Shown: piece by piece, positions 5,133 through 47,187 of the stretch
How positions within the stretch are numbered: the first letter of the stretch is position 1
Layout: each line of letters starts with the position of its first letter
DNA from: an uncultured bacterium
Lineage (GTDB): Bacteria > Patescibacteriota > Minisyncoccia > Phycocordibacterales > UBA9973
Length of the DNA: 64,000 nucleotides
Assembly (NCBI GenBank): GCA_903825255.1
Contig: CAIJZZ010000030.1
Location: 25,290 to 89,289 of the forward strand
Direction: 5' to 3'
Made by a program: the position numbers and the translations under genes
The notes under the pieces: generated by a model
The model's database searches: none
The model's input: the letters and a program-made list of their open reading frames with translations, nothing else
What the model was told of the DNA's origin: nothing

Positions 5133-5747
5133 ATGAAAGATGAAGATTTAAAAAATAAAGAAGAAAGTGAAATTGAAGTTAAACCAATAGATATTCCAGA
5201 GGAGGATGATGTTGTTGAATTTGAGTTTAACGATGATGGGGAGGAAGATTTAAAGAAAACTCTTAAGAAATTAAGAGCTGATTTAAAAATATATAAGAAA
5301 GAAAAGGAAGAATATTTGACTGGTTGGCAGAAAGAGCGAGCGGATTTTATTAATTATAAAAAAGGAGAAGATGATCGCAAGGCTAATTTTTCAGAAGCGA
5401 TGCGTGAAAGAATACTTATGCGTTTTTTGACCGTTTCTGATAGCTTTAATATGGCTTTTGCTAATAAAGAAGCTTGGGAAAAAGTAGATGAAAATTGGCG
5501 CAAAGGAGTGGAATATATTTATTCTCAAATGAATGTTATTTTTGAAGAATTTGGATTGAAGCCAGTAGGAGAAATCGGAGAAGCTTTTGATCCATCTCTT
5601 CATCAATCAATTGAAATGGTTGTCACCGATAAAAAAGAAGATGATCATAAGATTGCAGAAGTAGTCTTACGAGGTTACAAATTAACTGACCGGGTCATTC
5701 GAGCTGCGCGGGTAAACGTGTATGAATATAAAGAATCCGGAAAATAG
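5133..5747 (+). CDS. grpE: Nucleotide exchange factor GrpE
   Basis: coiled-coil N-term; FDPSLHQSIEMVVTDKKEDDHKIAEVVLRGYKLTDRVIRAARVNV. Confidence 0.95.
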   Translation: MKDEDLKNKEESEIEVKPIDIPEEDDVVEFEFNDDGEEDLKKTLKKLRADLKIYKKEKEEYLTGWQKERADFINYKKGEDDRKANFSEAMRERILMRFLTVSDSFNMAFANKEAWEKVDENWRKGVEYIYSQMNVIFEEFGLKPVGEIGEAFDPSLHQSIEMVVTDKKEDDHKIAEVVLRGYKLTDRVIRAARVNVYEYKESGK

Positions 5748-7401
5748 AAATTGTCAGAATTGTCGCAAAAATTTCACTATTGAAATAGAGGATTTTAACT
5801 TTTATGAAAAGATAAAAGTACCGGCACCGACGTGGTGTCCGGAATGTCGTCAGCAAAGACGTTATGCTTGGCGCAATGAGCGCACTTTGTACAGGCGTGA
5901 TTGTGATCTATGTGGTAAAAGTACCGTTACAATTTATTCACCAAATAAAGATTTAATAGTATATTGTTTGAAGTGTTGGTGGGGTGACGGATGGGATGCA
6001 AGTTTTTATGGACGAGATTTCGATTTCTCTCGAACATTTTTTGAACAATATAAAGAATTACAATCAAAAGTTCCGAGAATGGCTTTACTTTCAAAAAACA
6101 GTATAAATTCAGATTATACAAATCACTCAGGAGATAATAAAAATACTTATTTATCTTTTTGTTGTTTTGATACAGAAGACGTTTTTTATTCAACCTGGGT
6201 AATGAAATCCAGAAACTCAATGGAATGCAGTTATATTTATGATAGTGGTGAAAGACTTTATCAGTGCATTGATTCACGAAAAGTTTATCATTGTCAGTAT
6301 AGTTTTTTATTAGAAAATTGTGTTGACAGTCTATATTGTTATGATTGTCACAATTGTAATAATTGTTTTATGTCTTCAAATTTGCGTAATAAAAGTTATG
6401 TTTTTAAAAATGAACAATATTCACGCGAAGGTTATTTAGAAAAAATTAAAGAATACGATCTTGGATCCTATGAGACTCGTGAAAAATTGAGATTAGAATT
6501 TTTAGATTTAATGCTTCAGAATTCTATTCATCGTTATGCCATAATGGAACGCAATATAAATTCTATTGGTAATCAACTATACAATAGTAAAAATTCAAAA
6601 TATTGTTTTGATGCTGAGGTGCTTGAAGATACAAAATACCTTTACGCTTCACTGCAATTGAAGAATTCAATGGATCTTTATCATATCGGCTGGAATACTG
6701 AGCTCGCTTATGAAATTCATGGCAGTCGAGGGCTTTATAATTCTCAATTTTGTCATCTTTGCTATGACAATCAAGAATTACAATATTGCGATTCGTGTCA
6801 AAATTGTAAGAGTCTTTTTGGCTGTATTTCCGTGAAGAAAGGTAATTATATGATTTTAAATAAAAAATATGAGAAAGTTGAATATGAAGCATTAAAAGGT
6901 AAAATTATCGAACATATGAAAAGCACCGGAGAATATGGAGAATTTTTTCCTCCTTCCATTGCACCGGTGTGTTATAACGAAACACAGGGTAATTATTATA
7001 TGCCTGAAACTAGAGAAACAATTTTGGCTCGTGGCTGGACTTGGGAAGATCAAGTTTTGGGAACATATGGTAAAGAGACGATTAAAACAGAAGATATTCC
7101 AGATGATATAAAAAATATCACAGATGATTTTATTTTTAATATTTTAAAATGCGAAGATTGTAATAAAAATTTTAATATTATTCCTAATGAATTAAATTTT
7201 TATCGTCGCGAAGAAGTTCCGATACCACATAAATGCCCTGAATGTCGTTATAAGATGCGTTTCGCTATTCGTTTACCTCGTCGTCTTTGGCATCGAAAAT
7301 GCATGAATGAAGGCTGTCAAAATGAATTTGAAACTCCATATGCACCAGAAAGAAAAGAAATGGTTTTTTGTGAGTCGTGTTATAACAAAAAGATTTATTA
7401 A
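5722..7401 (+). CDS. Cys-rich double zinc-ribbon / solenoid family protein, paralog 1
   Basis: CQNCRKNFTIEIEDFNFYEKIKVPAPTWCPECR at the N-term; two NKxYxxxNxxY repeats; C-term CESCYNKKIY; start overlaps the grpE 3' end by 26 nt. Confidence 0.9.
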   Translation: MNIKNPENRNCQNCRKNFTIEIEDFNFYEKIKVPAPTWCPECRQQRRYAWRNERTLYRRDCDLCGKSTVTIYSPNKDLIVYCLKCWWGDGWDASFYGRDFDFSRTFFEQYKELQSKVPRMALLSKNSINSDYTNHSGDNKNTYLSFCCFDTEDVFYSTWVMKSRNSMECSYIYDSGERLYQCIDSRKVYHCQYSFLLENCVDSLYCYDCHNCNNCFMSSNLRNKSYVFKNEQYSREGYLEKIKEYDLGSYETREKLRLEFLDLMLQNSIHRYAIMERNINSIGNQLYNSKNSKYCFDAEVLEDTKYLYASLQLKNSMDLYHIGWNTELAYEIHGSRGLYNSQFCHLCYDNQELQYCDSCQNCKSLFGCISVKKGNYMILNKKYEKVEYEALKGKIIEHMKSTGEYGEFFPPSIAPVCYNETQGNYYMPETRETILARGWTWEDQVLGTYGKETIKTEDIPDDIKNITDDFIFNILKCEDCNKNFNIIPNELNFYRREEVPIPHKCPECRYKMRFAIRLPRRLWHRKCMNEGCQNEFETPYAPERKEMVFCESCYNKKIY

Positions 7402-7408
7402 AATTGAA

Positions 7409-9076
7409 ATGGAAAATAAAAGTGAAAACAAAATATGTCAAAACTGTCACACGGAATTCATAATTGAACCAGACGATTTCAATTTTTATGAAAAAATGCA
7501 GGTGCCAGCACCCGAAAAATGTCCAGATTGTAGACAGCAATTGCGAATGCTTTATCGGAATTTTAAAACTCTTTACAGAAGACCTTCTAGCCTATCTGGG
7601 AAAATGATTATTTCTATGTATGATTCTGATGTGTTATTTCCTGTTTATGATGTTGCCGAATGGTGGAGTGATGATTGGGAAGGGTTGTCCTATGGACAGG
7701 AAATTGATTGGGATAAGACGATTTTTGAGCAATTAGATTCCTTATTTAATATAGTTCCTCATATATGTGTAATGAACACTAAGAGTGAAAATTGTGAGTA
7801 TTCAAATATGGTAATTTCTAGTAGAAATTGTTATTTAAATTTTGGCTGTGTGGAAAATGAAAATTGTGATTATGGACATATTGTTTGGAATTCCAGAGAT
7901 TCTATAGACAATCTTTATATATATAAATCTGAAGCTTGTTATGAATGTATTGATTGTATAAATTGTAATAACCTTCTCTTTTCTCAAGAATGCGAAAGTT
8001 GTGCTGAGAGTATTGGCCTTTTTGACTGCAAGGGTTGTGTGAATTGTATTGGTTGTGTTGGTCTTATAAATAAGTCTTACTATATTTTTAATAAGCCAGC
8101 GAATAAACAAGAATATGATTCATATTTGAAATACAATCCGATCAGTGATAATAAAAATATTATTAAGATTTTAGAAGAAAGAGAAAAACTACGCAAAGAA
8201 ATTCCCCAAAGATCCTTTTTTGGTTTTAGAAATAATAATGTTTCAGGTAATCATATATATAATGCTAGAAATGTTCACTATTCTTTTGATGTTAAAGGAG
8301 GAGAAAATTCTAAATTTTGTTTTACTACAAGAAAAGCCTTGGATAGTTATGATGCTTCTTTCAATCCTGATATTTCTGAATGCTATCAAATATTAAATTG
8401 TACTGGAAGCAATAAAGTGTTATTTTCGCAAGGGGTGATTGATTCCCACGATGCACATTATTCTGACTTTTGTTACAATTGTGACAATATTTTTGGTTGT
8501 TGTGGGCTTCGCAAAAAATCTCATTGCATATTTAATAAGCAGTATTCAAAAGAAGAATATAAAGATATTTTATCTAAGATAATAAAAAAAATGAAAGAAG
8601 ATAATGAATGGGGTCTTTTTCTTTCTGAAAAATTAAAAGTCTTTACTTATAATGAATCAATTGCAAATGAATATATGCCACTTAGTAAAGAAGAGGCATT
8701 AAATAAGGGTTTTGGCTGGAAAGATACTATACCAAGTACTAGTGGTCAAGAAACTATTAATTTTGAGAAATTACCAAAAGATCCTAAAGAGTATGATGAA
8801 AATTTATTAAAAGAAGTTTTTGCTTGTGATGAATGTCATAAAAATTATCGCTTGATAAGCAGGGAAATAGCTTTTTACAAAAGACAACATTTATCATTAC
8901 CCCAAAAGTGTTTTAATTGTCGGCATGAAAATAGAATGAAATTACGAAACCCTAGGACTTTATTTGATGCAATATGTACAAAGTGTGGCAAAGATATAAA
9001 AACTTCTTATGATCAAAATAAACAAAAAATTTATAAAATTTATTGCGAGGAATGTTATAACAAAGAAGTATATTAA
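7409..9076 (+). CDS. Cys-rich double zinc-ribbon / solenoid family protein, paralog 2
   Basis: Start reassigned to ATG 7409 (MENKSENKICQNCHTEF); ORF track extends to 7307 into the previous gene; C-term CEECYNKEVY. Confidence 0.88.
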   Translation: MENKSENKICQNCHTEFIIEPDDFNFYEKMQVPAPEKCPDCRQQLRMLYRNFKTLYRRPSSLSGKMIISMYDSDVLFPVYDVAEWWSDDWEGLSYGQEIDWDKTIFEQLDSLFNIVPHICVMNTKSENCEYSNMVISSRNCYLNFGCVENENCDYGHIVWNSRDSIDNLYIYKSEACYECIDCINCNNLLFSQECESCAESIGLFDCKGCVNCIGCVGLINKSYYIFNKPANKQEYDSYLKYNPISDNKNIIKILEEREKLRKEIPQRSFFGFRNNNVSGNHIYNARNVHYSFDVKGGENSKFCFTTRKALDSYDASFNPDISECYQILNCTGSNKVLFSQGVIDSHDAHYSDFCYNCDNIFGCCGLRKKSHCIFNKQYSKEEYKDILSKIIKKMKEDNEWGLFLSEKLKVFTYNESIANEYMPLSKEEALNKGFGWKDTIPSTSGQETINFEKLPKDPKEYDENLLKEVFACDECHKNYRLISREIAFYKRQHLSLPQKCFNCRHENRMKLRNPRTLFDAICTKCGKDIKTSYDQNKQKIYKIYCEECYNKEVY

Positions 9077-9079
9077 TTT

Positions 9080-10780
9080 ATGAAATCAGAAGTTAAACAA
9101 TGCCAAAACTGCAAAAACGACTTTATTATTGAGCCAGATGATTTTTCTTTTTATGAAAAAATGAGAGTGTCAACACCGACGTTTTGCCCAGAATGCAGAT
9201 TTATCCGACGACTTTGTTGGCGTAATGAAAGATCATTATATAAACGCATATGTGATTTATGTAAAAAAAATATTATTTCAATGTATGACAAAGATGTCAC
9301 TTTTCCGGTTTATTGTCCGGATTGTTGGCGTAGTGATGCTTGGAATCCCATGGAATATGGAAAAGAATATGATTTTTTAAAATCATTTTTTGATCAATTT
9401 AAAGAATTATTTTATAAAGTTCCACGTATTTCTGTTTGGTCACTTAGAAATAATATAAATGTTGAATATGCCAATTTTGTTTATAATTCGAAAAATATTT
9501 ACCTATCTTATTCAATAATTGATGATTCAGAAGATATCTTTTTTTCAAGTAACCTTGATGATTCAAAATCAATGATTGATGTATATAATGCATCAAAAAG
9601 TGAATTTGTTTACGAATCTATAGGATCTGTAAAAAACTATAATTGCAAATATACATATTGGTCATCAAGTTGTGTTGATTGTAGTTTTATCCTTGATTGC
9701 ATAAATTGCTCGGATTGTTTTGCTTGTGTAAATTTAAGAAATCAAAAATATTGTATTTGGAATGTGGAATATTCGAAAGAAGAATATTTAAATAAAATTA
9801 AAAAAATTAATATAGGAAGCTATGAATCACTTCAAAAAAACATACGTGAGTTTTGGGATTTTTCTTTAAAATTTCCTAGAAAATATACTCGAATATTAAA
9901 TAGTCATAATTCTAGTGGTGATGAACTTCGTGATTGTAAAAATGTTAATTATTCATTTAATTGTTTTAATTCAGAAAATGCAAAATATGGATATAGATCT
10001 CCTAGTATAAAAGATGCTATGGATATAAACCATTTTCATAATGCTGAATTAGCTTATGAACATTCGACTGGAGGCTCATTCAATAGTTCTAATATTAAAT
10101 TTATTATTAATGGTGGAGATGCAACAAATGGATTAGAATATAGTGATTTTTGTCATTCTTCAAATAATCTCTTTGCGTGTATTGGTATAAAGTCAAAAAA
10201 TTATTGTATTTTTAATAAGCAATATGGAAAAGCAGAATATTTTGAAATAGTAGAAAAAATTAAGAAGCAGATGAATAAAATGCCTTACATAGATAAAAAA
10301 GGTAATGAATATAAATATGGAGAATTTTTTCCTTCTGAGCTTTCACCCTTTGGTTATAATGAAACGGTTGCTAATGATCATTTTCCATTAGAAAAGGAAA
10401 AAATTTTAGAAGGAGGTTATAATTGGAAAAATAAAGAAGAAAACAAATATAAAATTACGAAAAAAGCAAAAGAATTACCAGACGATATAAAAGATGTTGA
10501 CGATTCAATTTTAAATGAAGTGATAGAATGTGCTCAATCAAAAAAGGCTTTTAAAATAACACCCTTTGAACTTCAGTTTTATCGTAGAATGAATATTCCG
10601 ATTCCTAGACTTCATCAAGACGAAAGATACAAAAAAAGGCTTACCTTGAGAAATCCAATGAAACTCTGGCATCGAAAGTGTATGCATAAAGATTGTGTGA
10701 ATGAATTTGAAACTCCTTATGCGCCAGAACGGCAGGAGATAATTTATTGCGAACGTTGTTATCAGCAAGAAGTTTATTAA
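9080..10780 (+). CDS. Cys-rich double zinc-ribbon / solenoid family protein, paralog 3
   Basis: CQNCKNDFIIEPDDFSFYEKMRVSTPTFCPECR; C-term CERCYQQEVY; C-terminal A module has lost its CPxC. Confidence 0.9.
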   Translation: MKSEVKQCQNCKNDFIIEPDDFSFYEKMRVSTPTFCPECRFIRRLCWRNERSLYKRICDLCKKNIISMYDKDVTFPVYCPDCWRSDAWNPMEYGKEYDFLKSFFDQFKELFYKVPRISVWSLRNNINVEYANFVYNSKNIYLSYSIIDDSEDIFFSSNLDDSKSMIDVYNASKSEFVYESIGSVKNYNCKYTYWSSSCVDCSFILDCINCSDCFACVNLRNQKYCIWNVEYSKEEYLNKIKKINIGSYESLQKNIREFWDFSLKFPRKYTRILNSHNSSGDELRDCKNVNYSFNCFNSENAKYGYRSPSIKDAMDINHFHNAELAYEHSTGGSFNSSNIKFIINGGDATNGLEYSDFCHSSNNLFACIGIKSKNYCIFNKQYGKAEYFEIVEKIKKQMNKMPYIDKKGNEYKYGEFFPSELSPFGYNETVANDHFPLEKEKILEGGYNWKNKEENKYKITKKAKELPDDIKDVDDSILNEVIECAQSKKAFKITPFELQFYRRMNIPIPRLHQDERYKKRLTLRNPMKLWHRKCMHKDCVNEFETPYAPERQEIIYCERCYQQEVY

Positions 10781-15717: not shown

Positions 15718-17967
15718 ATGGATTTACCCCAAATACCTTTAAACAAAGATTTGACTTACATCGGACTCACGACTTTTCGTGATAAAAATACTCTTTTCGG
15801 TATCAAGCGCAAAGATAGGCGTCAGCACGTATATTTACTTGGAAAGTCAGGTACTGGTAAATCAGTGTTGATGTTTAATATGGTTATTCAAAATATTATC
15901 AACGGTGAAGGTGTTTGCGTAGTTGATCCTCATGGAGAATTAGTCGAGGGAATTTTATCGGCTATACCACCAAATCGTTTGAAGGATGTAGTATATTTTA
16001 ATCCAGCTGATATTGATTATCATATTGGTTTTAATGTTTTGGAATTAATTGATCCACAATATAAACATTTGGTCGCCTCAGGACTCATGGGTATTTTTAC
16101 GAAAATTTGGGCGAATGCTTGGAGTGCTCGTATGGAATACATTTTAAACAATGCGATTTTGGCATTACTAGATACTCCTGGAACAACCTTGCTTGGAATT
16201 CCTCGAATGCTCGTGGACAAAGATTATCGTCAGAAAATAATTTCAAATTTAAAAGATCCAGTGATCAAGGCTTTTTGGGTGCATGAATATGAAGCTTGGC
16301 AAGATAAGTTTCGTAATGAAGCCATCGCCCCGATTCAAAATAAAGTCGGACAATTTCTTTCAACTTCCATTATTCGAAATGTTGTTGGTCAGTCAAAAAG
16401 TACGATAGATATTTTTGAAATTATGAACAGTGGAAAAATTTTTCTTGTAAACGTTTCAAAAGGGCGTATTGGTGAAGACAACTCTGCATTACTCGGAGGG
16501 ATGATCATCACCAAAATTCAATTAGCAGCGATGGAACGTGTACGTATTCCTGAAGATGACCGTAAAGATTTTTATTTATATGTCGACGAATTCCAAAATT
16601 TCGTAACAGAATCTTTTGCTGGTATTTTATCTGAAGCTCGAAAATATCGTTTGAATCTTACAGTGGCGCACCAGTACACAGCCCAACTCGTTTCAGACAA
16701 AAGTTCAGCTGTGCGAGATGCAGTTTTTGGCAACGTCGGGACGATGATTGTTTTTCGAGTCGGCTCAGATGACGCAGAATTTTTAGAAAAAGAATTTGAT
16801 CCAGAATTCACTCCATCGGACATTGTGAATTTACCAAACTATAAAATTTATCTAAAACTAATGATTGATGGGGTTACTTCAAGACCATTTTCTGCAAAGA
16901 CGTTACCGCAGATGGTAAAATCAGGTAATATAGAAATCGAGCAAGAAGTTATTAAATCATCCCGTGCCCTTTATTGTAGATCCAGAGAAGATGTTGAACG
17001 TGAAATCAATAATTGGAGCGGAATGTCGCTTGGAGATGATATTACTAGTGCTGGTGATGTCGAAATGTTTGCGGCAATTTGTTCTATTTGTCATAAAGAG
17101 ACAAAGGTGCCATTTAAACCACAACCAGATAGACCAGTGTATTGTAAAGATTGTATTGCTAAAATGAAGACAGGAGAGTTGAAACCTCTTCGAGGCTCAA
17201 TGAATCAAATTAAAGAAGATGAAATTAAATTTTTTAAACCATTAGCAGATTTGGGTATTGAATTTGAACCAAAAGAGAAACACACTGAGTCTGAAAGATA
17301 TCCAGAAAGAACAAATGAAAATAAGCCGATTATGAGTAGTAATAAACCAAAAATTTTTGGAGCTCTTAAAAAAGTTTTTACCCCGTCACTCGCGAGCAAC
17401 AGGGTTACACCATCATCTGCAAACAATACAGCTAATAAAAATATTCCACCTATAAATCCACAGCCGATAAATAGGCCGAATCCTGTTTATGTAAAAAATG
17501 ATTTTAAAAATCAAAATCAAAAATCAACTTTTGTAAATAAGGAAAAAACTAGAGACAACTCAGCCTTGCGAGATATTTTAAATAAGACTCTTTCTGAAAA
17601 TAAAGTTTTTGAAGTCAAAAAGGAAGAACCAAAAATGGAAGAAATTAAAAAAGAGACTCCTCCACCGATCTCCTTGAGCGATTTAAAAGTTCAAAAACCA
17701 GCTAATATTTCAAATTTAAAGGATCGAGGAGCAAGTGTTGAAGATATGAGTAAATTAAAGAATTTAATTTCAGAAACAAAAATTCCTATACCTGAACCTA
17801 CTAAAGAAACTCCTGTTTTTGTTCCTGAGCCCATAAAAGAAATTCCAAAAGAAGAACCTAAAGAAGAAATAAAAAAAGAAGAAAAATCTGTTCCCATTCC
17901 TTCAGTTTCACCGTCTGGAAAGGTACGCGAAGTACCAGAAGATGTTTTAAGAAAAATTTTAGAATAA
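15718..17967 (+). CDS. TraD/TraG/HerA-like type IV coupling ATPase with embedded zinc ribbon
   Basis: LLGKSGTGKSVLM; VVDPHGELVEGIL; DFYLYVDEFQNFVTESFAGILSEARKYRLNLTVAHQY; CSICHK..RPVYCKDC. Confidence 0.85.
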   Translation: MDLPQIPLNKDLTYIGLTTFRDKNTLFGIKRKDRRQHVYLLGKSGTGKSVLMFNMVIQNIINGEGVCVVDPHGELVEGILSAIPPNRLKDVVYFNPADIDYHIGFNVLELIDPQYKHLVASGLMGIFTKIWANAWSARMEYILNNAILALLDTPGTTLLGIPRMLVDKDYRQKIISNLKDPVIKAFWVHEYEAWQDKFRNEAIAPIQNKVGQFLSTSIIRNVVGQSKSTIDIFEIMNSGKIFLVNVSKGRIGEDNSALLGGMIITKIQLAAMERVRIPEDDRKDFYLYVDEFQNFVTESFAGILSEARKYRLNLTVAHQYTAQLVSDKSSAVRDAVFGNVGTMIVFRVGSDDAEFLEKEFDPEFTPSDIVNLPNYKIYLKLMIDGVTSRPFSAKTLPQMVKSGNIEIEQEVIKSSRALYCRSREDVEREINNWSGMSLGDDITSAGDVEMFAAICSICHKETKVPFKPQPDRPVYCKDCIAKMKTGELKPLRGSMNQIKEDEIKFFKPLADLGIEFEPKEKHTESERYPERTNENKPIMSSNKPKIFGALKKVFTPSLASNRVTPSSANNTANKNIPPINPQPINRPNPVYVKNDFKNQNQKSTFVNKEKTRDNSALRDILNKTLSENKVFEVKKEEPKMEEIKKETPPPISLSDLKVQKPANISNLKDRGASVEDMSKLKNLISETKIPIPEPTKETPVFVPEPIKEIPKEEPKEEIKKEEKSVPIPSVSPSGKVREVPEDVLRKILE
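17381..17404. repeat. Palindromic element copy inside ATPase CDS
   Basis: CCCCGTCACTCGCGAGCAACAGGG; 19/24 identical to the metK copy. Confidence 0.55.
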
Positions 17968-17983
17968 CTCTATTTAAAGATTT

Positions 17984-19741
17984 ATGACAGAAAAAACAGA
18001 AACTCGGGTTTGCCAAAACTGTAAACAAAACTTCACTATAGAGTCTGAGGATTTTAGTTTTTATAATAAAATCGGAGTACCAGCACCACTTTGGTGCCCT
18101 CGTTGTAGATTTTTACGAAAACTCACTTATTTAAATGACCGTTGTCTTTATAAAAGCAATTGTTCAAATTGTAAAGAAAATATTATTTCCAGATATCATC
18201 CAGATTCCAATGTACCAGCTTGGTGTATGAAATGTCATATTAGTGACACTTGGGATGGTAGAGATTATGGTAGAGAATATGATTTTTCTAAAAATTTTTT
18301 TGAACAATTCAATGAGTTAAGAAGTGTTGTGCCTCAACGGGCACTTGATAAAAATGAAAGAAACGGCCCAGGTTGTGAATATTCGAATTACTGTTTTACT
18401 AGTAAAAATATTTATTTATCATATTGTGTGCATAAATCAGAAAATATTAAATACTGCAAACATACTTATTTGGATACTAAAAATTGTCTTGATTGTTTAA
18501 GGGTTAAAAAAAGTGATCGTTGTTATGAAATAGTCCAATCTAGTGATAGTTTCAGTTCTACTTTTTTAATTGAGAGCGAACAATGTATTTCATCACATTT
18601 TTTATTTGATTGTGTAAATTGTATTGATTGTTGTATGTCATCGGGACTTCGAAATAAAAGTAACGTTTTTCGAAATAAACAATATTCTAAAGAAGAATAT
18701 CAAAAAGCGATTTCTGAGTTACGACTCGATACTTATTCAGGTCAAAAAATAGCCAAAGAAGAATTCGAAGAGCTGGCTCGAAATTCTATTCACCGATTTG
18801 CTCATATAAAAAATTCTATAAATTGTGCAGGTGATTTTATTGCGAATTCAAAGAATTGTGTTCATTGTTATGGTATAGAAACTGCAGAAAATTTGAAAAA
18901 TTGCTTTCTTTCTATGGCACCCAATGTTCAAGATTCTCAAGATCTTATAATGACAGGAAGAGGAGAGGAGTGTTATGAAAGTACAAATGCAGGCCGAGGT
19001 ATGAGCCGAGTACTTTTATCATTTAGCTGTGGTAGTGGTTGTAGAAATATACTCTATAGTGATGGTTGTCGAGGTTGTATAGATTGTTTTGGCTGCATTA
19101 GTTTAATAAATCAAAAGTATTGTATTTTAAATAAACAATATTCTAAAGAGGAATATTTTAAAACAGTTGAGGAAATAAAAAAACAAATGAACGAAGTACC
19201 CTATGTTGATAAAATCGGCAGGGTATATGGTTTTGGTGAATGTTTTCCACCAGAACTTTCTCCTTTTACATATAATGAGAGTTTTGCTTTTGAAGAACAT
19301 CCTTTATCTCGCGAAGAAGCCTTGGCTAATGGCTATAAATGGAGAGAAAGGGAATCTAAGGCTTATACGTCTTCTATCCAAGTAAACGATATTCCTGAAA
19401 GTATACACGATGTTTCTGATTTAATTTGTGATGGAACTATTGAGTGTTTAAATAAAGGAAAAGTGGAGACTCTCTGTACTTCGGCTTTTAAAATATTACC
19501 TGATGAACTAGTTTTTTATAAACAAATGAATTTACCTATACCTAGATATTGTCCAAATTGTAGGTATTATGATCGTATAAAATGGAGAAATCCTTTTAAT
19601 TTTTATACCAGAGAATGTATGTGTGGTCTTTTAAATCATAATCATAAAGGGAAATGTTCAAATAAATTTGAGACTATGTATGCGCCGGAAAAGCCAGAAA
19701 TTATTTATTGCAAGGAGTGCTATCAGAGAGAAGTGTATTAG
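17984..19741 (+). CDS. Cys-rich double zinc-ribbon / solenoid family protein, paralog 4
   Basis: CQNCKQNFTIESEDFSFYNKIGVPAPLWCPRCR; GLRNKSNVFRNKQYSKEEY; C-term CKECYQREVY. Confidence 0.9.
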   Translation: MTEKTETRVCQNCKQNFTIESEDFSFYNKIGVPAPLWCPRCRFLRKLTYLNDRCLYKSNCSNCKENIISRYHPDSNVPAWCMKCHISDTWDGRDYGREYDFSKNFFEQFNELRSVVPQRALDKNERNGPGCEYSNYCFTSKNIYLSYCVHKSENIKYCKHTYLDTKNCLDCLRVKKSDRCYEIVQSSDSFSSTFLIESEQCISSHFLFDCVNCIDCCMSSGLRNKSNVFRNKQYSKEEYQKAISELRLDTYSGQKIAKEEFEELARNSIHRFAHIKNSINCAGDFIANSKNCVHCYGIETAENLKNCFLSMAPNVQDSQDLIMTGRGEECYESTNAGRGMSRVLLSFSCGSGCRNILYSDGCRGCIDCFGCISLINQKYCILNKQYSKEEYFKTVEEIKKQMNEVPYVDKIGRVYGFGECFPPELSPFTYNESFAFEEHPLSREEALANGYKWRERESKAYTSSIQVNDIPESIHDVSDLICDGTIECLNKGKVETLCTSAFKILPDELVFYKQMNLPIPRYCPNCRYYDRIKWRNPFNFYTRECMCGLLNHNHKGKCSNKFETMYAPEKPEIIYCKECYQREVY

Positions 19742-19782: not shown

Positions 19783-21273
19783 ATGCCCAAACCAAATCGA
19801 GTTCAAATAATAAAATATGGTCCACCACCACCAGAGCTGCCTGTTTTCGGCAAAGTAAATCCAGAAGAAGCTTCTTTTATTGGACGTACAAATTATGTTG
19901 CAGCCCTAGAGGAAAAAAAATTTGTTTTCGGAATTAAGCGTGTAGACCGTCGAAGACATTTATATATTATTGGAAAGTCAGGCGTCGGAAAGTCTAAATT
20001 ACTTGAGCTTCTTATTCGTCAGGATATTCAATATGGGCATGGCCTATGTTTGATAGATCCTCACGGTGACGAATTTAAAAATATTTTAGATTTTGTTCCA
20101 AAAGAGCGCATTGAAGATGTTTGTATTATTGATCCTACGGATGTAGATTTTCCTGCATCTTTCAATCCGTTGGCCAATGTTGACCCTGCTTTTAAATTTA
20201 TTTTAACTCAAGGTTTGATTGAAGTTTTTCAAAAACAATTCGGAGCCAACTGGACTCCACGTCTCGAACACGTTTTTCGTTTTACCTGTTTAGCCTTACT
20301 CGATTATCCGCATGCCACGATGCGCGGAATGATTTCAATGTTGACGGACAGAAATTATCGACAGAAAGTCGTTGAATATATTACGGACGATATGGTGAAA
20401 AGATTCTTCGCTATTGAATTCGCGGATTGGTCTGAAAAATTTGATACTGACGCTATCATTCCACTCGTAAACAAACTAGGGCAATTTCTTTCAGATCCAT
20501 TACTTCGAAATATTTTCGGACAAAAAGAAAACAAAATTGATGTTGGTAAGCTTATGAATGAGAAGAAAATAATTTTGATTAACATTTCTAAAGGCCGTCT
20601 AGGTGAAGAGAATTCTTCTTTCTTGGGTTCAATGTTTTTGACTAAAATCAAACAGGCTGGAATGGAGAGAGCAAGTCTTCCGGAGAGTGCTCGAACCGAT
20701 TTTTATTTATATGTCGATGAGTTTCAAAATGTCGTGACTCAGACATTTGAAAATATTTTATCAGAAGCTCGTAAATACGGTTTAAATCTTACAGTAGCGC
20801 ATCAATATGTGGGTCAAATCATCACAAAAGTGCACCAAGCTGTGCTTGGTAATTGTGGAAGTATTATTACTTTTCGTATTGGTGGTGAAGATGCCGTAAA
20901 AATGAAACCAGAATTTGCTCCACTTTTCGATGTGAAAGATATGATTAACCTTGCGGTAGCTGAGTTTTATATCAAAATGACTATCGATGGTGAATCATAT
21001 GATCCTTTTTCCGCGGAGACTTTAAGAGTTTTACCTCCGACTCATATTTCTTATCAAAAAGAAATTATTGCAGCTTCTCATCGAAAATATACAATTTCCA
21101 AAGACGCAGCAGCTGAACTTATTGCAAAAGAAGAAGCGACAATTATCCGAAGTGCTGAAGAAAAAGCGATAATTGAAGGTAAGGGTAAAAAAAATAAAAA
21201 AGAAAATAATGAAGACGAAGAAGAGGCTACCACATCTAAAAAAGCTTCACAAGAAGCAGAGCCTATGATATAG
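19783..21273 (+). CDS. TraD/TraG/HerA-like type IV coupling ATPase, paralog of 15718..17967
   Basis: FGIKRVDRRRHLYIIGKSGVGKSKLLELLIRQD; DPHGDEF; FYLYVDEFQNVVTQTFENILSEARKYGLNLTVAHQY. Confidence 0.85.
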   Translation: MPKPNRVQIIKYGPPPPELPVFGKVNPEEASFIGRTNYVAALEEKKFVFGIKRVDRRRHLYIIGKSGVGKSKLLELLIRQDIQYGHGLCLIDPHGDEFKNILDFVPKERIEDVCIIDPTDVDFPASFNPLANVDPAFKFILTQGLIEVFQKQFGANWTPRLEHVFRFTCLALLDYPHATMRGMISMLTDRNYRQKVVEYITDDMVKRFFAIEFADWSEKFDTDAIIPLVNKLGQFLSDPLLRNIFGQKENKIDVGKLMNEKKIILINISKGRLGEENSSFLGSMFLTKIKQAGMERASLPESARTDFYLYVDEFQNVVTQTFENILSEARKYGLNLTVAHQYVGQIITKVHQAVLGNCGSIITFRIGGEDAVKMKPEFAPLFDVKDMINLAVAEFYIKMTIDGESYDPFSAETLRVLPPTHISYQKEIIAASHRKYTISKDAAAELIAKEEATIIRSAEEKAIIEGKGKKNKKENNEDEEEATTSKKASQEAEPMI

Positions 21274-41874: not shown

Positions 41875-43623
41875 ATGAATTCTGAGAAAAAAGTTTGCCA
41901 AAACTGTCAGAAAAATTTTATTATTGAGTCAAACGATTTTTCTTTTTACGAAAAAATCAAAGTACCTCCACCGACTTGGTGTCCGGATTGTCGTTGTGCC
42001 AGGCGCATGGTTCACAGAAATGAAAAGAATTTACATAAAAGAACTTGTGACATAACTGGTAAAAATATTATTTCAATTTATCGTCCAGATTGTCCATATA
42101 CTATTTGTGATAAAGATTATTATTTTTCGGATGATTTTGATCCATTAAAATATGGTCAAGAATATAATACGAATATTAAATTCTTTGAACAATTTTATGA
42201 GTTTGCTAAAAAAGTTCCTTTTCCGTCTCTCTTCGTTAGAAATTCTCTAAACTGTGAATATAATCAAGATATGGGTGGAGCTTCTAACTGCTATCTTTGT
42301 TTTCGAACACATGACTCACAAAATATGCTCTACACCTATCGAGGAAATCATTCAGCTTACTGTACTGACTGTTTTCAAGCAGTTGTGCAATCAGAGTTTT
42401 TATACGAATGTGTAAATGTCATTACCTGTAGTAATAGTAAATTTTTACATAATTGTGAAAAATGTTCTGATTCAGCTTTCTTATACAATTGTTCTGGTTG
42501 TGTAGATTGCTTTATGTGTATAAATATACGAAACAAGCAGTGCTGTTTTAAGAATGAACAATATTCTCGCGAAGATTATAAAAAAATATTAGATTCATAT
42601 AATCTTTCTACATACGAAGGACAACAAAAAGCACTAACTGAATTTGAAGAATATATTAAAGAAAATCCTAAAAGAAATTTATCAATTTTTAGGTCAAACA
42701 ATGTTGTCGGTGATAATATTTTTGACTCTAAAGATAGTAAGAATGTTTGGAATGTGCGAGATTTAGAAAACTGTTCATATATCTGGGATTCTTTTAATTT
42801 TAAAGATTGCATGGATACATATTCTGGAGCTAAAGCAGAACTTATTTATGAGTCTACAGCCACTACCAAGGGCAGTAGTAATTGTCATTTTTGTGTGAGG
42901 GTGCATAGTGGGTCACGAGATTGTGAATATAGTTGGTTTTTACAAAATTGTTCAAACTGTTTCGGTTGTGTTGGACTTCGAAATAAAGAATACTGTATTT
43001 TTAATATTCAGTATGAAAAAAATGAATATGAAAAACTTTTGTCAGAAATAAAATCAAAAATGCTCGAAGATAAAGAATATGGAGAATTTTTCCCGTTTTA
43101 CACTTCACCTTTTCCATACAATGATACTGTTGCGAATGAATATTTTCCTGAAAGTGAGGAATGGGCTAAAGAGAGGGGGATGAAGTGGGGGAGTTTCGAG
43201 GAAAAAAATTATAAATCTACAATCTCTTCAGAAAATTTACCGAATGATATAAAAGATGTACAGGACTCAATTTTAAATGAAATAATTACTTGTGCACACA
43301 ATGGTGAATGTGCTCATAACTGCACAAAGGCTTATAGAATAGTTGCCGATGAATTAGCTTTTTATCGAAGAAGAAATTTACCATTACCCCGAGAATGTCC
43401 TAATTGTCGATATTATCGTAGGTTGGATTATCGTAATCCGACTGTCTTGCGGGAAACCGTCTGCATGTGTGAAGGTGAAGGCATAAGTAATGGTGTATAT
43501 AAAAATACAGTACTACATCAGCATGGAGCAGGGTTTTGTGGAAAAAATATTAATACTACTATAAGAGATGATTCAGGTTTTTTGATTTATTGTGAGGAAT
43601 GTTATAAAAAAGAAGTTTTTTAA
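41875..43623 (+). CDS. Cys-rich double zinc-ribbon / solenoid family protein, paralog 5
   Basis: CQNCQKNFIIESNDFSFYEKIKVPPPTWCPDCR; C-term CEECYKKEVF. Confidence 0.9.
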   Translation: MNSEKKVCQNCQKNFIIESNDFSFYEKIKVPPPTWCPDCRCARRMVHRNEKNLHKRTCDITGKNIISIYRPDCPYTICDKDYYFSDDFDPLKYGQEYNTNIKFFEQFYEFAKKVPFPSLFVRNSLNCEYNQDMGGASNCYLCFRTHDSQNMLYTYRGNHSAYCTDCFQAVVQSEFLYECVNVITCSNSKFLHNCEKCSDSAFLYNCSGCVDCFMCINIRNKQCCFKNEQYSREDYKKILDSYNLSTYEGQQKALTEFEEYIKENPKRNLSIFRSNNVVGDNIFDSKDSKNVWNVRDLENCSYIWDSFNFKDCMDTYSGAKAELIYESTATTKGSSNCHFCVRVHSGSRDCEYSWFLQNCSNCFGCVGLRNKEYCIFNIQYEKNEYEKLLSEIKSKMLEDKEYGEFFPFYTSPFPYNDTVANEYFPESEEWAKERGMKWGSFEEKNYKSTISSENLPNDIKDVQDSILNEIITCAHNGECAHNCTKAYRIVADELAFYRRRNLPLPRECPNCRYYRRLDYRNPTVLRETVCMCEGEGISNGVYKNTVLHQHGAGFCGKNINTTIRDDSGFLIYCEECYKKEVF

Positions 43624-45453: not shown

Positions 45454-47187
45454 ATGCAAAGCGAAATCAAACAATGCCAGAATTGTAAACAAGACTTTAC
45501 TATCGAGCCAGAAGATTTTAATTTTTATGAAAAGATAAATGTCCCGGCACCGACCTGGTGTCCGGAGTGCCGAATGGTAAGGCGAATGCTCTTTAGAAAT
45601 GAAAGATCTTTATATAAACAGAATTGTGGTCTCTGCGGTAAATCTGCGATTTCAATGTATGATCCAGAAAAAAATTATATGGTATATTGTCTCGATTGTT
45701 ACAATTCTGATAAATGGGATCCGAAAGATTGTGGCGTAGATTATGATTTTTCAAAATCATTTTTTAGTCAACTTGAAGATCTATATAAAAAAATTCCTAG
45801 AAAAGTACTTTATCAAGATTTTGCAATTAATAGTGAATATACAAATCAAATTGTTTACATAAAAAATAGTTATCTTTGTTTTGGTGGACATCATTACGAA
45901 GATTGTGCTTATTGTGCCCAGAATTTCTTTTTAAAAAATTGCTTAGATGTTGATTTTTCTAGTAAAAGTGAATTTTGTTTTGATTCTTTTCATTTGAGAA
46001 ATTGTTTTCGAATACGATTCGGATATTATTCAGAAGATTGTATGGATTCTTGGTTTATCTATGATTGTCGTAATTGTTCTAATTGTGTTGGATGCACTAA
46101 TTTACGTAATAAAAGTTATTGTATTTTTAATGAGCAATATGAGAAGGGAGAATATGAAAATAAACTAAAAGAATTAAATTTATCCAATCCTGATAATTTA
46201 GAACAAGTGAATAAGACTTTTTGGCAACACTCATTAAATTATCCTCGAAAATATGCCAATATAAAAAATATTACTAATTCGACGGGGGATGATATGGAAC
46301 AAGTGAGAAATTGTCGACATTCATTTTCGGTCACTGAAGATGAAAATGTGAATTATTCTTTTTTTGTGCCGACTGGAGGAAAAGATTGTTTTGATATTGA
46401 TCATGTGGGATTGGGTACGACAGAAACATATGAATTGCATAGTGGTTTTGGGGATAACAGAGTTTTCTTTTCCAATCGAGTATATTTTTCACATAGTGTA
46501 GAATATTCTGACGATTGCTATAATTGTGAAAATCTTTTTGCTTGCGCAGGATTACGTAAAAAGCAATATTGTATCTTTAATAAAGAATATTCTAAAGAAG
46601 AATATATTGAATTAGTTTCTAAAATTAAAAAGCAGATGGATGAAATGCCTTATGTAGATTCTAAAGGTAGAATTTATAAATATGGTGAATTTTTCCCGAT
46701 AGATATAATGCCTTTTGCTTATAATGATTCAGTTATACATGAATACTTTCCATTAACTAAAGAAGAAATTTTAAACAAGGGATATAAATATAAAGAACCT
46801 GAAATAAAAAATTATAAACCTACAATGTTAGCGCATCAATTACCTGGAATTGAAAAAGCAGATGAGAACGTCTTAAAAGAAATTATTCAATGTGAGCATA
46901 TGGGGCATTGTAATGATAAATGCACGATTGCATTTCGAATCATTCAAAATGAATTAAATATCTGTAAAATGTTGGGAGTTCCATTACCTAGACTTTGTCC
47001 AAACTGCCGGCATATGGAAAGAATGAAATTATTAAATCCACCGAAGCTTTATCATAGGGAGTGCATGTGTGATAAGACTGGACATATGCATAATGGTAAA
47101 TGTACTATTGAATTTGAGACACCGTATTCTACAAAAAGACCAGAAATTATTTATTGTGAAAAATGTTATCAACAAGAGGTGTATTAA
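45454..47187 (+). CDS. Cys-rich double zinc-ribbon / solenoid family protein, paralog 7
   Basis: CQNCKQDFTIEPEDFNFYEKINVPAPTWCPECR; 38 Cys counted in 577 aa; C-term CEKCYQQEVY. Confidence 0.92.
   Translation: MQSEIKQCQNCKQDFTIEPEDFNFYEKINVPAPTWCPECRMVRRMLFRNERSLYKQNCGLCGKSAISMYDPEKNYMVYCLDCYNSDKWDPKDCGVDYDFSKSFFSQLEDLYKKIPRKVLYQDFAINSEYTNQIVYIKNSYLCFGGHHYEDCAYCAQNFFLKNCLDVDFSSKSEFCFDSFHLRNCFRIRFGYYSEDCMDSWFIYDCRNCSNCVGCTNLRNKSYCIFNEQYEKGEYENKLKELNLSNPDNLEQVNKTFWQHSLNYPRKYANIKNITNSTGDDMEQVRNCRHSFSVTEDENVNYSFFVPTGGKDCFDIDHVGLGTTETYELHSGFGDNRVFFSNRVYFSHSVEYSDDCYNCENLFACAGLRKKQYCIFNKEYSKEEYIELVSKIKKQMDEMPYVDSKGRIYKYGEFFPIDIMPFAYNDSVIHEYFPLTKEEILNKGYKYKEPEIKNYKPTMLAHQLPGIEKADENVLKEIIQCEHMGHCNDKCTIAFRIIQNELNICKMLGVPLPRLCPNCRHMERMKLLNPPKLYHRECMCDKTGHMHNGKCTIEFETPYSTKRPEIIYCEKCYQQEVY

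What the first reader, a model, noticed from the sequence alone, without database searches (positions are those of the whole stretch)
45454..47187. Mirror architecture: the same pair of zinc modules caps both ends of the protein
N-term module A (CQNC..F.IE..DFNFYEK..VPAPTWCPECR..RR) reappears near the C-term as A' (C..F.I...EL.FY+...PLPR.CPNCR..+R). Module B (LYK.NCGLCGKSAISMYDPE..YMVYCLDCY) reappears as B' (LYHRECMC...CTIEFETPYSTKRPEIIYCEKCY). So the order is A-B-[repeat 1]-[repeat 2]-A'-B'. Module A resembles zf-trcl-type zinc ribbons in its C-x2-C...CPxCR spacing. The symmetry suggests an ancestral A-B ribbon was duplicated around a solenoid, or that the protein bridges two identical ligands.
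Basis: partly seen in the sequence, partly recalled or inferred. Interest (0 to 1): 0.7.

Follow-up and report, generated by a model that had tools for sequence, protein, structure and literature searches.

The report
Zinc-capped solenoid proteins of ultrasmall bacteria
Tiny bacteria of the Patescibacteria group carry up to 26 copies of an undescribed protein with the same pair of zinc-binding modules at each end of a twice-repeated coil, and it nearly always comes with one particular secretion-type motor protein, which suggests the two work together.

Summary
The 577-aa protein at 45454-47187 reads A-B-R1-R2-A'-B'. Profile comparison gives A-B against A'-B' 99.66% probability (E 2.5e-25) and R1 against R2 99.95% (E 2e-37); cross-module controls stay below 45%. 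A structure model (pLDDT 86.6) places the same elements in register at both ends.

The larger finding is outside the coordinates. The protein belongs to a multigene family: 7 copies in the window, 17 in this 0.98-Mb genome, up to 26 in relatives. No Pfam or NCBIfam model covers the whole protein or the solenoid. It is tied to one VirD4/TrwB-like coupling ATPase: family genes lie beside it in all 19 genomes examined, and presence/absence matches (45 of 53 family-bearing versus 13 of 334 family-free genomes in the class; outside it, the 24 best ATPase scorers all carry the family). Split and partial forms exist.

Most likely these are interchangeable cytosolic partners, perhaps adaptors or cargo, of an orphan VirD4-like ATPase. 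The partnership is well supported; the role is inferred.

The parts
45454..47187 (+). The protein of the finding, 577 aa, A-B-R1-R2-A'-B'
45463..45594 (+). Module A (res 4-47), zf_Tbcl-like treble clef, C8 C11 C36 C39
   Evidence: 199/200 homologues keep all four Cys; homologous free proteins hit PF13451
45595..45729 (+). Module B (res 48-92), zf_Tbcl_2 / CxxC-x17-CxxC, C58 C61 C79 C82
   Evidence: PF23477 E 3e-4, below cut-off; concerted Cys loss in 93/200
45796..46188 (+). Solenoid repeat R1 (res 115-245), ends in the cap motif NLRNKsYCIFN.QYSKEEY
   Evidence: hhalign R1-R2 99.95%; 12-residue periodicity
46246..46659 (+). Solenoid repeat R2 (res 265-402), same cap motif
   Evidence: strands every 6 residues; pLDDT above 90 over most of it
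46879..47031 (+). Module A' (res 476-526)
   Evidence: A vs A' 99.24%
47032..47184 (+). Module B' (res 527-577)
   Evidence: B vs B' 98.31%
5722..7401 (+). Family paralogue, 559 aa
7307..9076 (+). Family paralogue (likely start 7409); B module has lost all its Cys
9080..10780 (+). Family paralogue, 566 aa; A' module has lost three of its four Cys
15718..17967 (+). VirD4/TrwB-like ATPase ('ATP1') with a zf_Tbcl_2 module at res 449-484
   Evidence: PF10412 1.9e-9, PF02534 4.6e-8, PF23477 1.7e-14
17984..19741 (+). Family paralogue between the two ATPase genes (16-bp and 41-bp gaps)
19783..21273 (+). VirD4/TrwB-like ATPase ('ATP2'), the co-occurring partner
41875..43623 (+). Family paralogue in tandem with the finding, 582 aa
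43592..45451 (+). Family paralogue in tandem with the finding (start probably 43673 or 43703)

Best explanation
The protein is one member of a diversified multigene family of soluble, cytosolic, zinc-capped beta-solenoid proteins that serve as partner proteins of a dedicated VirD4/TrwB-like coupling ATPase (ATP2). Proposed working: the solenoid (R), which in other Patescibacteria is encoded next to or fused to a VirD4-like ATPase, docks on or near the motor; the zf_Tbcl/zf_Tbcl_2 pairs at the two ends are constant gripping modules; and the solenoid faces, the least conserved part, give each paralogue its own specificity. Each paralogue would be a different adaptor or substrate receptor for the same motor, or a different cargo of it. 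Shown here: the architecture, its internal homology, the family size, the gene linkage and the co-occurrence with ATP2. Inferred: cytosolic location (no signal sequence is apparent), physical contact with the ATPase, which part does what, and that the ends bind protein or nucleic acid.
For: Co-occurrence: own class, ATP2 in 45/53 family-bearing vs 13/334 family-free genomes; outside the class, the 24 best ATP2 scorers all carry the family, 24 of 27 carriers. Linkage: family genes at or between ATP1 and ATP2 in this genome and in all 9 same-genus genomes; in 9 further genera the best ATPase lies 158-3055 bp from a family gene while none of the other 25 coupling-type ATPases in those genomes is nearer than 5.9 kb. 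The ATPase is the commonest neighbour in loci fetched without regard to it (26 of 80 loci, 25 of its 36 genes adjacent). Single-R genes: 6 of 6 lie directly downstream of a VirD4-like ATPase gene and a seventh is fused to one. ATPase, free A-B and free R-R are neighbours on one strand in L129. ATP1 itself bears a B-type module. The solenoid is the variable part (identity 0.29-0.35 vs 0.59-0.60 for A and the R2 cap). The nearest relatives of 14 of 15 own paralogues are in other genomes and dN/dS is ~0.11, so these are old, separately kept proteins.
Against: The genomes are related, so the p-values overstate independence. 13 family-free genomes in the class keep an intact ATP2-like gene, so the ATPase can do without the family; 8 family-bearing genomes show none. 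Many family genes are not near any ATPase, including the trio that holds the finding (next to mraY-ftsW-murG). The E cut for 'ATP2' was chosen at a visible gap. No interaction or expression data. In one species a T4CP homologue was not essential for epibiotic growth (PMC12102498).
Confidence: 0.6

Rival explanations
1. The family members are cargo: proteins delivered through a type IV-like channel to a host or neighbour cell, with the ATPase as coupling protein and the zinc ends as recognition signals.
For: Many cargo-like paralogues (up to 26) per single ATP2; constant ends and variable middle; patchy presence.
Against: No catalytic or toxin-like domain matched. The solenoid alone can be fused to an ATPase, odd for a cargo. 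Strong purifying selection rather than an arms-race pattern.
Confidence: 0.25
2. They are nucleic-acid-binding proteins, two zinc pairs clamping DNA or RNA, working with a DNA-pumping ATPase in DNA uptake or exchange.
For: Treble-clef modules with conserved Arg (R40, R43, R44, R519, R523) are common in nucleic-acid binders (general knowledge); the ATPases match conjugative DNA-transfer families and, weakly, the DNA-translocating CedD.
Against: Almost half of the members lost the zinc ligands of B; no basic solenoid face was tested; no phage or plasmid copies in three collections apart from one partial viral-contig hit.
Confidence: 0.15
3. A cytosolic metal or redox store: Cys-rich solenoids hold metal, zinc ends give stability, and the ATPase link is only inherited gene order.
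For: R1 has a CxxCxxCxxC ladder at C205/208/211/214 (81-97% conserved).
Against: Does not explain why R2 has few conserved Cys, the need for many distinct paralogues, or co-occurrence with one ATPase subtype across separate classes.
Confidence: 0.07
4. The A-A' and B-B' likeness is convergent: unrelated zinc knuckles that look alike because of CxxC motifs.
For: Short Cys motifs do match by chance.
Against: The matched region spans 76 columns including non-Cys positions; cross-module controls fail; same secondary-structure register.
Confidence: 0.02

Closest known systems
PF13451 zf_Tbcl + PF23477 zf_Tbcl_2 / TIGR04272 (free small zinc proteins)
   Same: A and B, and A' and B', correspond to these two families in the same order; free A-B proteins of the phylum score far above cut-off for both
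   Different: Here the pair is used twice, at both ends of a solenoid of ~300 aa; the window protein's own scores are below the Pfam cut-offs
VirD4/TrwB/TraG-type coupling ATPases of type IV secretion (PF10412, PF02534, PF12696)
   Same: The linked ATPases hit these families
   Different: Published survey: most Patescibacteria VirD4 homologues are not near virB4 (148 of 5,713 are; PMC12102498); a text search of that paper found no mention of zinc proteins
Beta-solenoid proteins (left-handed helices LpxD, LpxA, gamma-carbonic anhydrase)
   Same: Weak fold resemblance of the middle region
   Different: No match at E<=0.001; suggested 12-residue coils
LIM domains (two zinc fingers in tandem)
   Same: Two adjacent treble-clef-like fingers; weak hits
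   Different: Below cut-off; ligands all Cys

Membership tests
zf_Tbcl (PF13451) for A and A' | Profile score above gathering cut-off (24 bits) | tested here: not met
   Window proteins score below (best 20.8 bits, paralogue 7307-9076)
zf_Tbcl (PF13451) for A and A' | Homology to accepted members | tested here: met
   Free A-B proteins found with the family profile score 81-85 bits
zf_Tbcl_2 (PF23477) for B and B' | CxxC-x17-CxxC pattern | tested here: met
   B: C58 C61 x17 C79 C82; B' has a longer first knuckle
zf_Tbcl_2 (PF23477) for B and B' | Score above cut-off (27 bits) | tested here: not met
   20.8 bits here, 26.9 in paralogue 5722-7401
Type IV secretion component | Linked to a VirD4-like coupling ATPase | tested here: met
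Type IV secretion component | Encoded near virB4 and channel genes | not tested
   No virB4 search was run
Type IV secretion component | Required for, or passes through, the channel | not testable with these tools
   Needs experiment
LIM domain (PF00412) | Score above cut-off | tested here: not met
   16.8 vs 22.9 bits, one paralogue only

The most novel reading that the evidence does not exclude
Patescibacteria run a repurposed VirD4-type motor with a large, interchangeable set of zinc-capped solenoid adaptors or cargoes, a secretion or uptake system organised unlike known type IV systems, in which one motor serves up to about 26 paralogous partners.
Probability: 0.35. Interest if true: 0.88.

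Novelty: new variant of a known kind. Interest (0 to 1): 0.66.

Why it matters
These genomes are about 1 Mb or smaller and much reduced, yet many spend a few per cent of their length on this one unnamed family. Patescibacteria also hold thousands of VirD4-like coupling ATPases that are mostly not near virB4 and have no assigned job (PMC12102498). Finding a protein family that travels with one subtype of that ATPase across separate classes gives a concrete, testable partner, and the zinc-solenoid-zinc design with its split and fused intermediates shows how it may have been put together.

Tried and rejected
PDB sequence search: no significant match. Foldseek against PDB and viral models: nothing at E<=0.001, only weak left-handed helices and zinc ribbons. 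Phages, plasmids, viral contigs: nothing but one partial hit, so no support for a viral or plasmid origin. Idea that ATP2 decays where the family is absent (stop codons reported in 6 of 13 family-free genomes): checked in the DNA and wrong, the genes are intact. Chaperone link (grpE, dnaK, dnaJ nearby): mostly shared gene order of one group, absent in other groups' ATPase-family loci. Recent amplification inside this genome: rejected, the nearest relatives are in other genomes. Intragenic duplication versus re-recruitment of A-B: tree too poorly resolved. Literature: no paper found on the family; one bears on the ATPase.

Full report
OBSERVATION. Profile-profile comparison: A-B vs A'-B' 99.66%, E 2.5e-25, 76 columns; A-A' 99.24%; B-B' 98.31%; R1-R2 99.95%, E 2e-37; all cross-module controls under 45%. 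The mirrored order A-B-R-R-A'-B' is therefore homology and not just cysteine likeness.

FOLD. AlphaFold2 with 110 homologues gives pLDDT 86.6 and pTM 0.89 (R1 is the weak part, 60-65). The ends share strand-strand-helix-helix then hairpin-helix, at constant offsets. R2 has strands every six residues and R1 a 12-residue period, which suggests a beta-solenoid with 12 residues per coil; no library structure matches it well.

WHAT THE MODULES ARE. A and B are relatives of Pfam zf_Tbcl and zf_Tbcl_2. The window proteins score just below the cut-offs, but free ~100-aa A-B proteins found with the family profile score 81-85 and 53-70 bits. Zinc ligands: A 199/200 complete, B' 196/200, A' 172/200, B 102/200; in B the last three Cys vanish together (195/200 all present or all absent, 50 expected from shuffling), as expected for a whole zinc site being given up. 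A' and B' carry extra inserts with CxH..C..C (116 of 132 long forms) and CxC..HxH..C (118 of 129), perhaps an additional metal site (inference).

FAMILY. Seven copies lie in the window, 17 in the genome, up to 26 in congeners. In the class 53 of 387 sampled genomes carry strong matches; other classes of the phylum carry it too (27 genomes). It is patchy: absent from the 16 other families of the order sampled. 151 of 212 copies have a same-strand family neighbour. Own paralogues have their nearest relatives in other genomes (14 of 15), and dN/dS to the closest relative in another genome is ~0.11: old paralogues under purifying selection. The solenoids are the most variable structured parts.

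PARTIAL FORMS. Free A-B genes (L110-L115, L123, L124), free single-R genes of 233-263 aa (L116-L118, L120-L122), an ATPase-R fusion of 638 aa (L119), free R-R of 342-344 aa (L128, L129), and R-R-A'B' (L127, L132) all exist. In L129 ATPase, A-B and R-R are consecutive on one strand. Such split and fused forms usually mean that the pieces work together (inference).

ATPASE LINK. The commonest neighbour of family genes is a VirD4/TrwB-like ATPase (26 of 80 loci). In this window a family gene sits between ATP1 and ATP2. All nine same-genus genomes tested have family genes at or between the two. In nine genera of other classes the best-matching ATPase lies 158-3055 bp from a family gene, while none of the other 25 coupling-type ATPases is within 5.9 kb. 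Co-occurrence with ATP2: 45/53 vs 13/334 in the class (Fisher 1e-38), and the 24 best-scoring genomes outside the class all carry the family. These genomes share ancestry, so the p-values are descriptive. All seven single-R proteins are next to or fused to a VirD4-like ATPase.

MECHANISM. Shown: architecture, homology, copy number, linkage, co-occurrence. Inferred: that family members are partners of the ATPase. The single-R/ATPase fusion favours docking by the solenoid; conserved zinc ends and variable solenoid favour a constant-grip, variable-face design. I prefer an adaptor/receptor role over cargo because of the fusion and the purifying selection, but the many-to-one ratio fits cargo as well. 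[quoted passage not shown] this family is a candidate for what some of them work with.

LIMITS. ATP2 was defined by a score gap seen in the data; the partner claim is statistical; no expression or binding data exist here; absence of a described family means absence from Pfam, NCBIfam and the open-access papers searched.

Noticed in passing
L116, L117, L118, L120, L121, L122; L119: Proteins of 233-263 aa with a single R solenoid, each directly downstream of a VirD4-like ATPase gene; in L119 the two are one 638-aa protein. The free ones tested have no Pfam (two) or NCBIfam (one) match.
   Followed up: partly
window 15718-17967: VirD4-like ATPase with a C-terminal zf_Tbcl_2 module (res 449-484), the same type as module B of the family.
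   Followed up: partly
L078:2257-4164, L067:2642-4510, L136:883-2815: Two genes with hydrophobic N-termini (425-473 aa and 157-219 aa), without Pfam match where tested, precede ATP2 in several genomes; in other classes the ATPase is a 741-791-aa protein with a long N-terminal extension, possibly the same parts fused.
   Followed up: no
window 7409-9076, 9080-10780, 41875-43623: Paralogues in which a zinc site has lost three or all of its Cys together while the rest of the module is kept.
   Followed up: yes
L062: Contig filed under a Burkholderiales MAG carries family genes, the ATPase and dnaJ in Patescibacteria order; probably mis-binned.
   Followed up: no
L134, L136-L138, L142, L144-L146: ATP2 of family-free genomes is often ~440-455 aa rather than ~470-500 aa, as if the C-terminal tail were missing; not tested statistically.
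   Followed up: no
window 46066-46095 (res 205-214): CxxCxxCxxC ladder in R1, 81-97% conserved, possible extra metal site.
   Followed up: no
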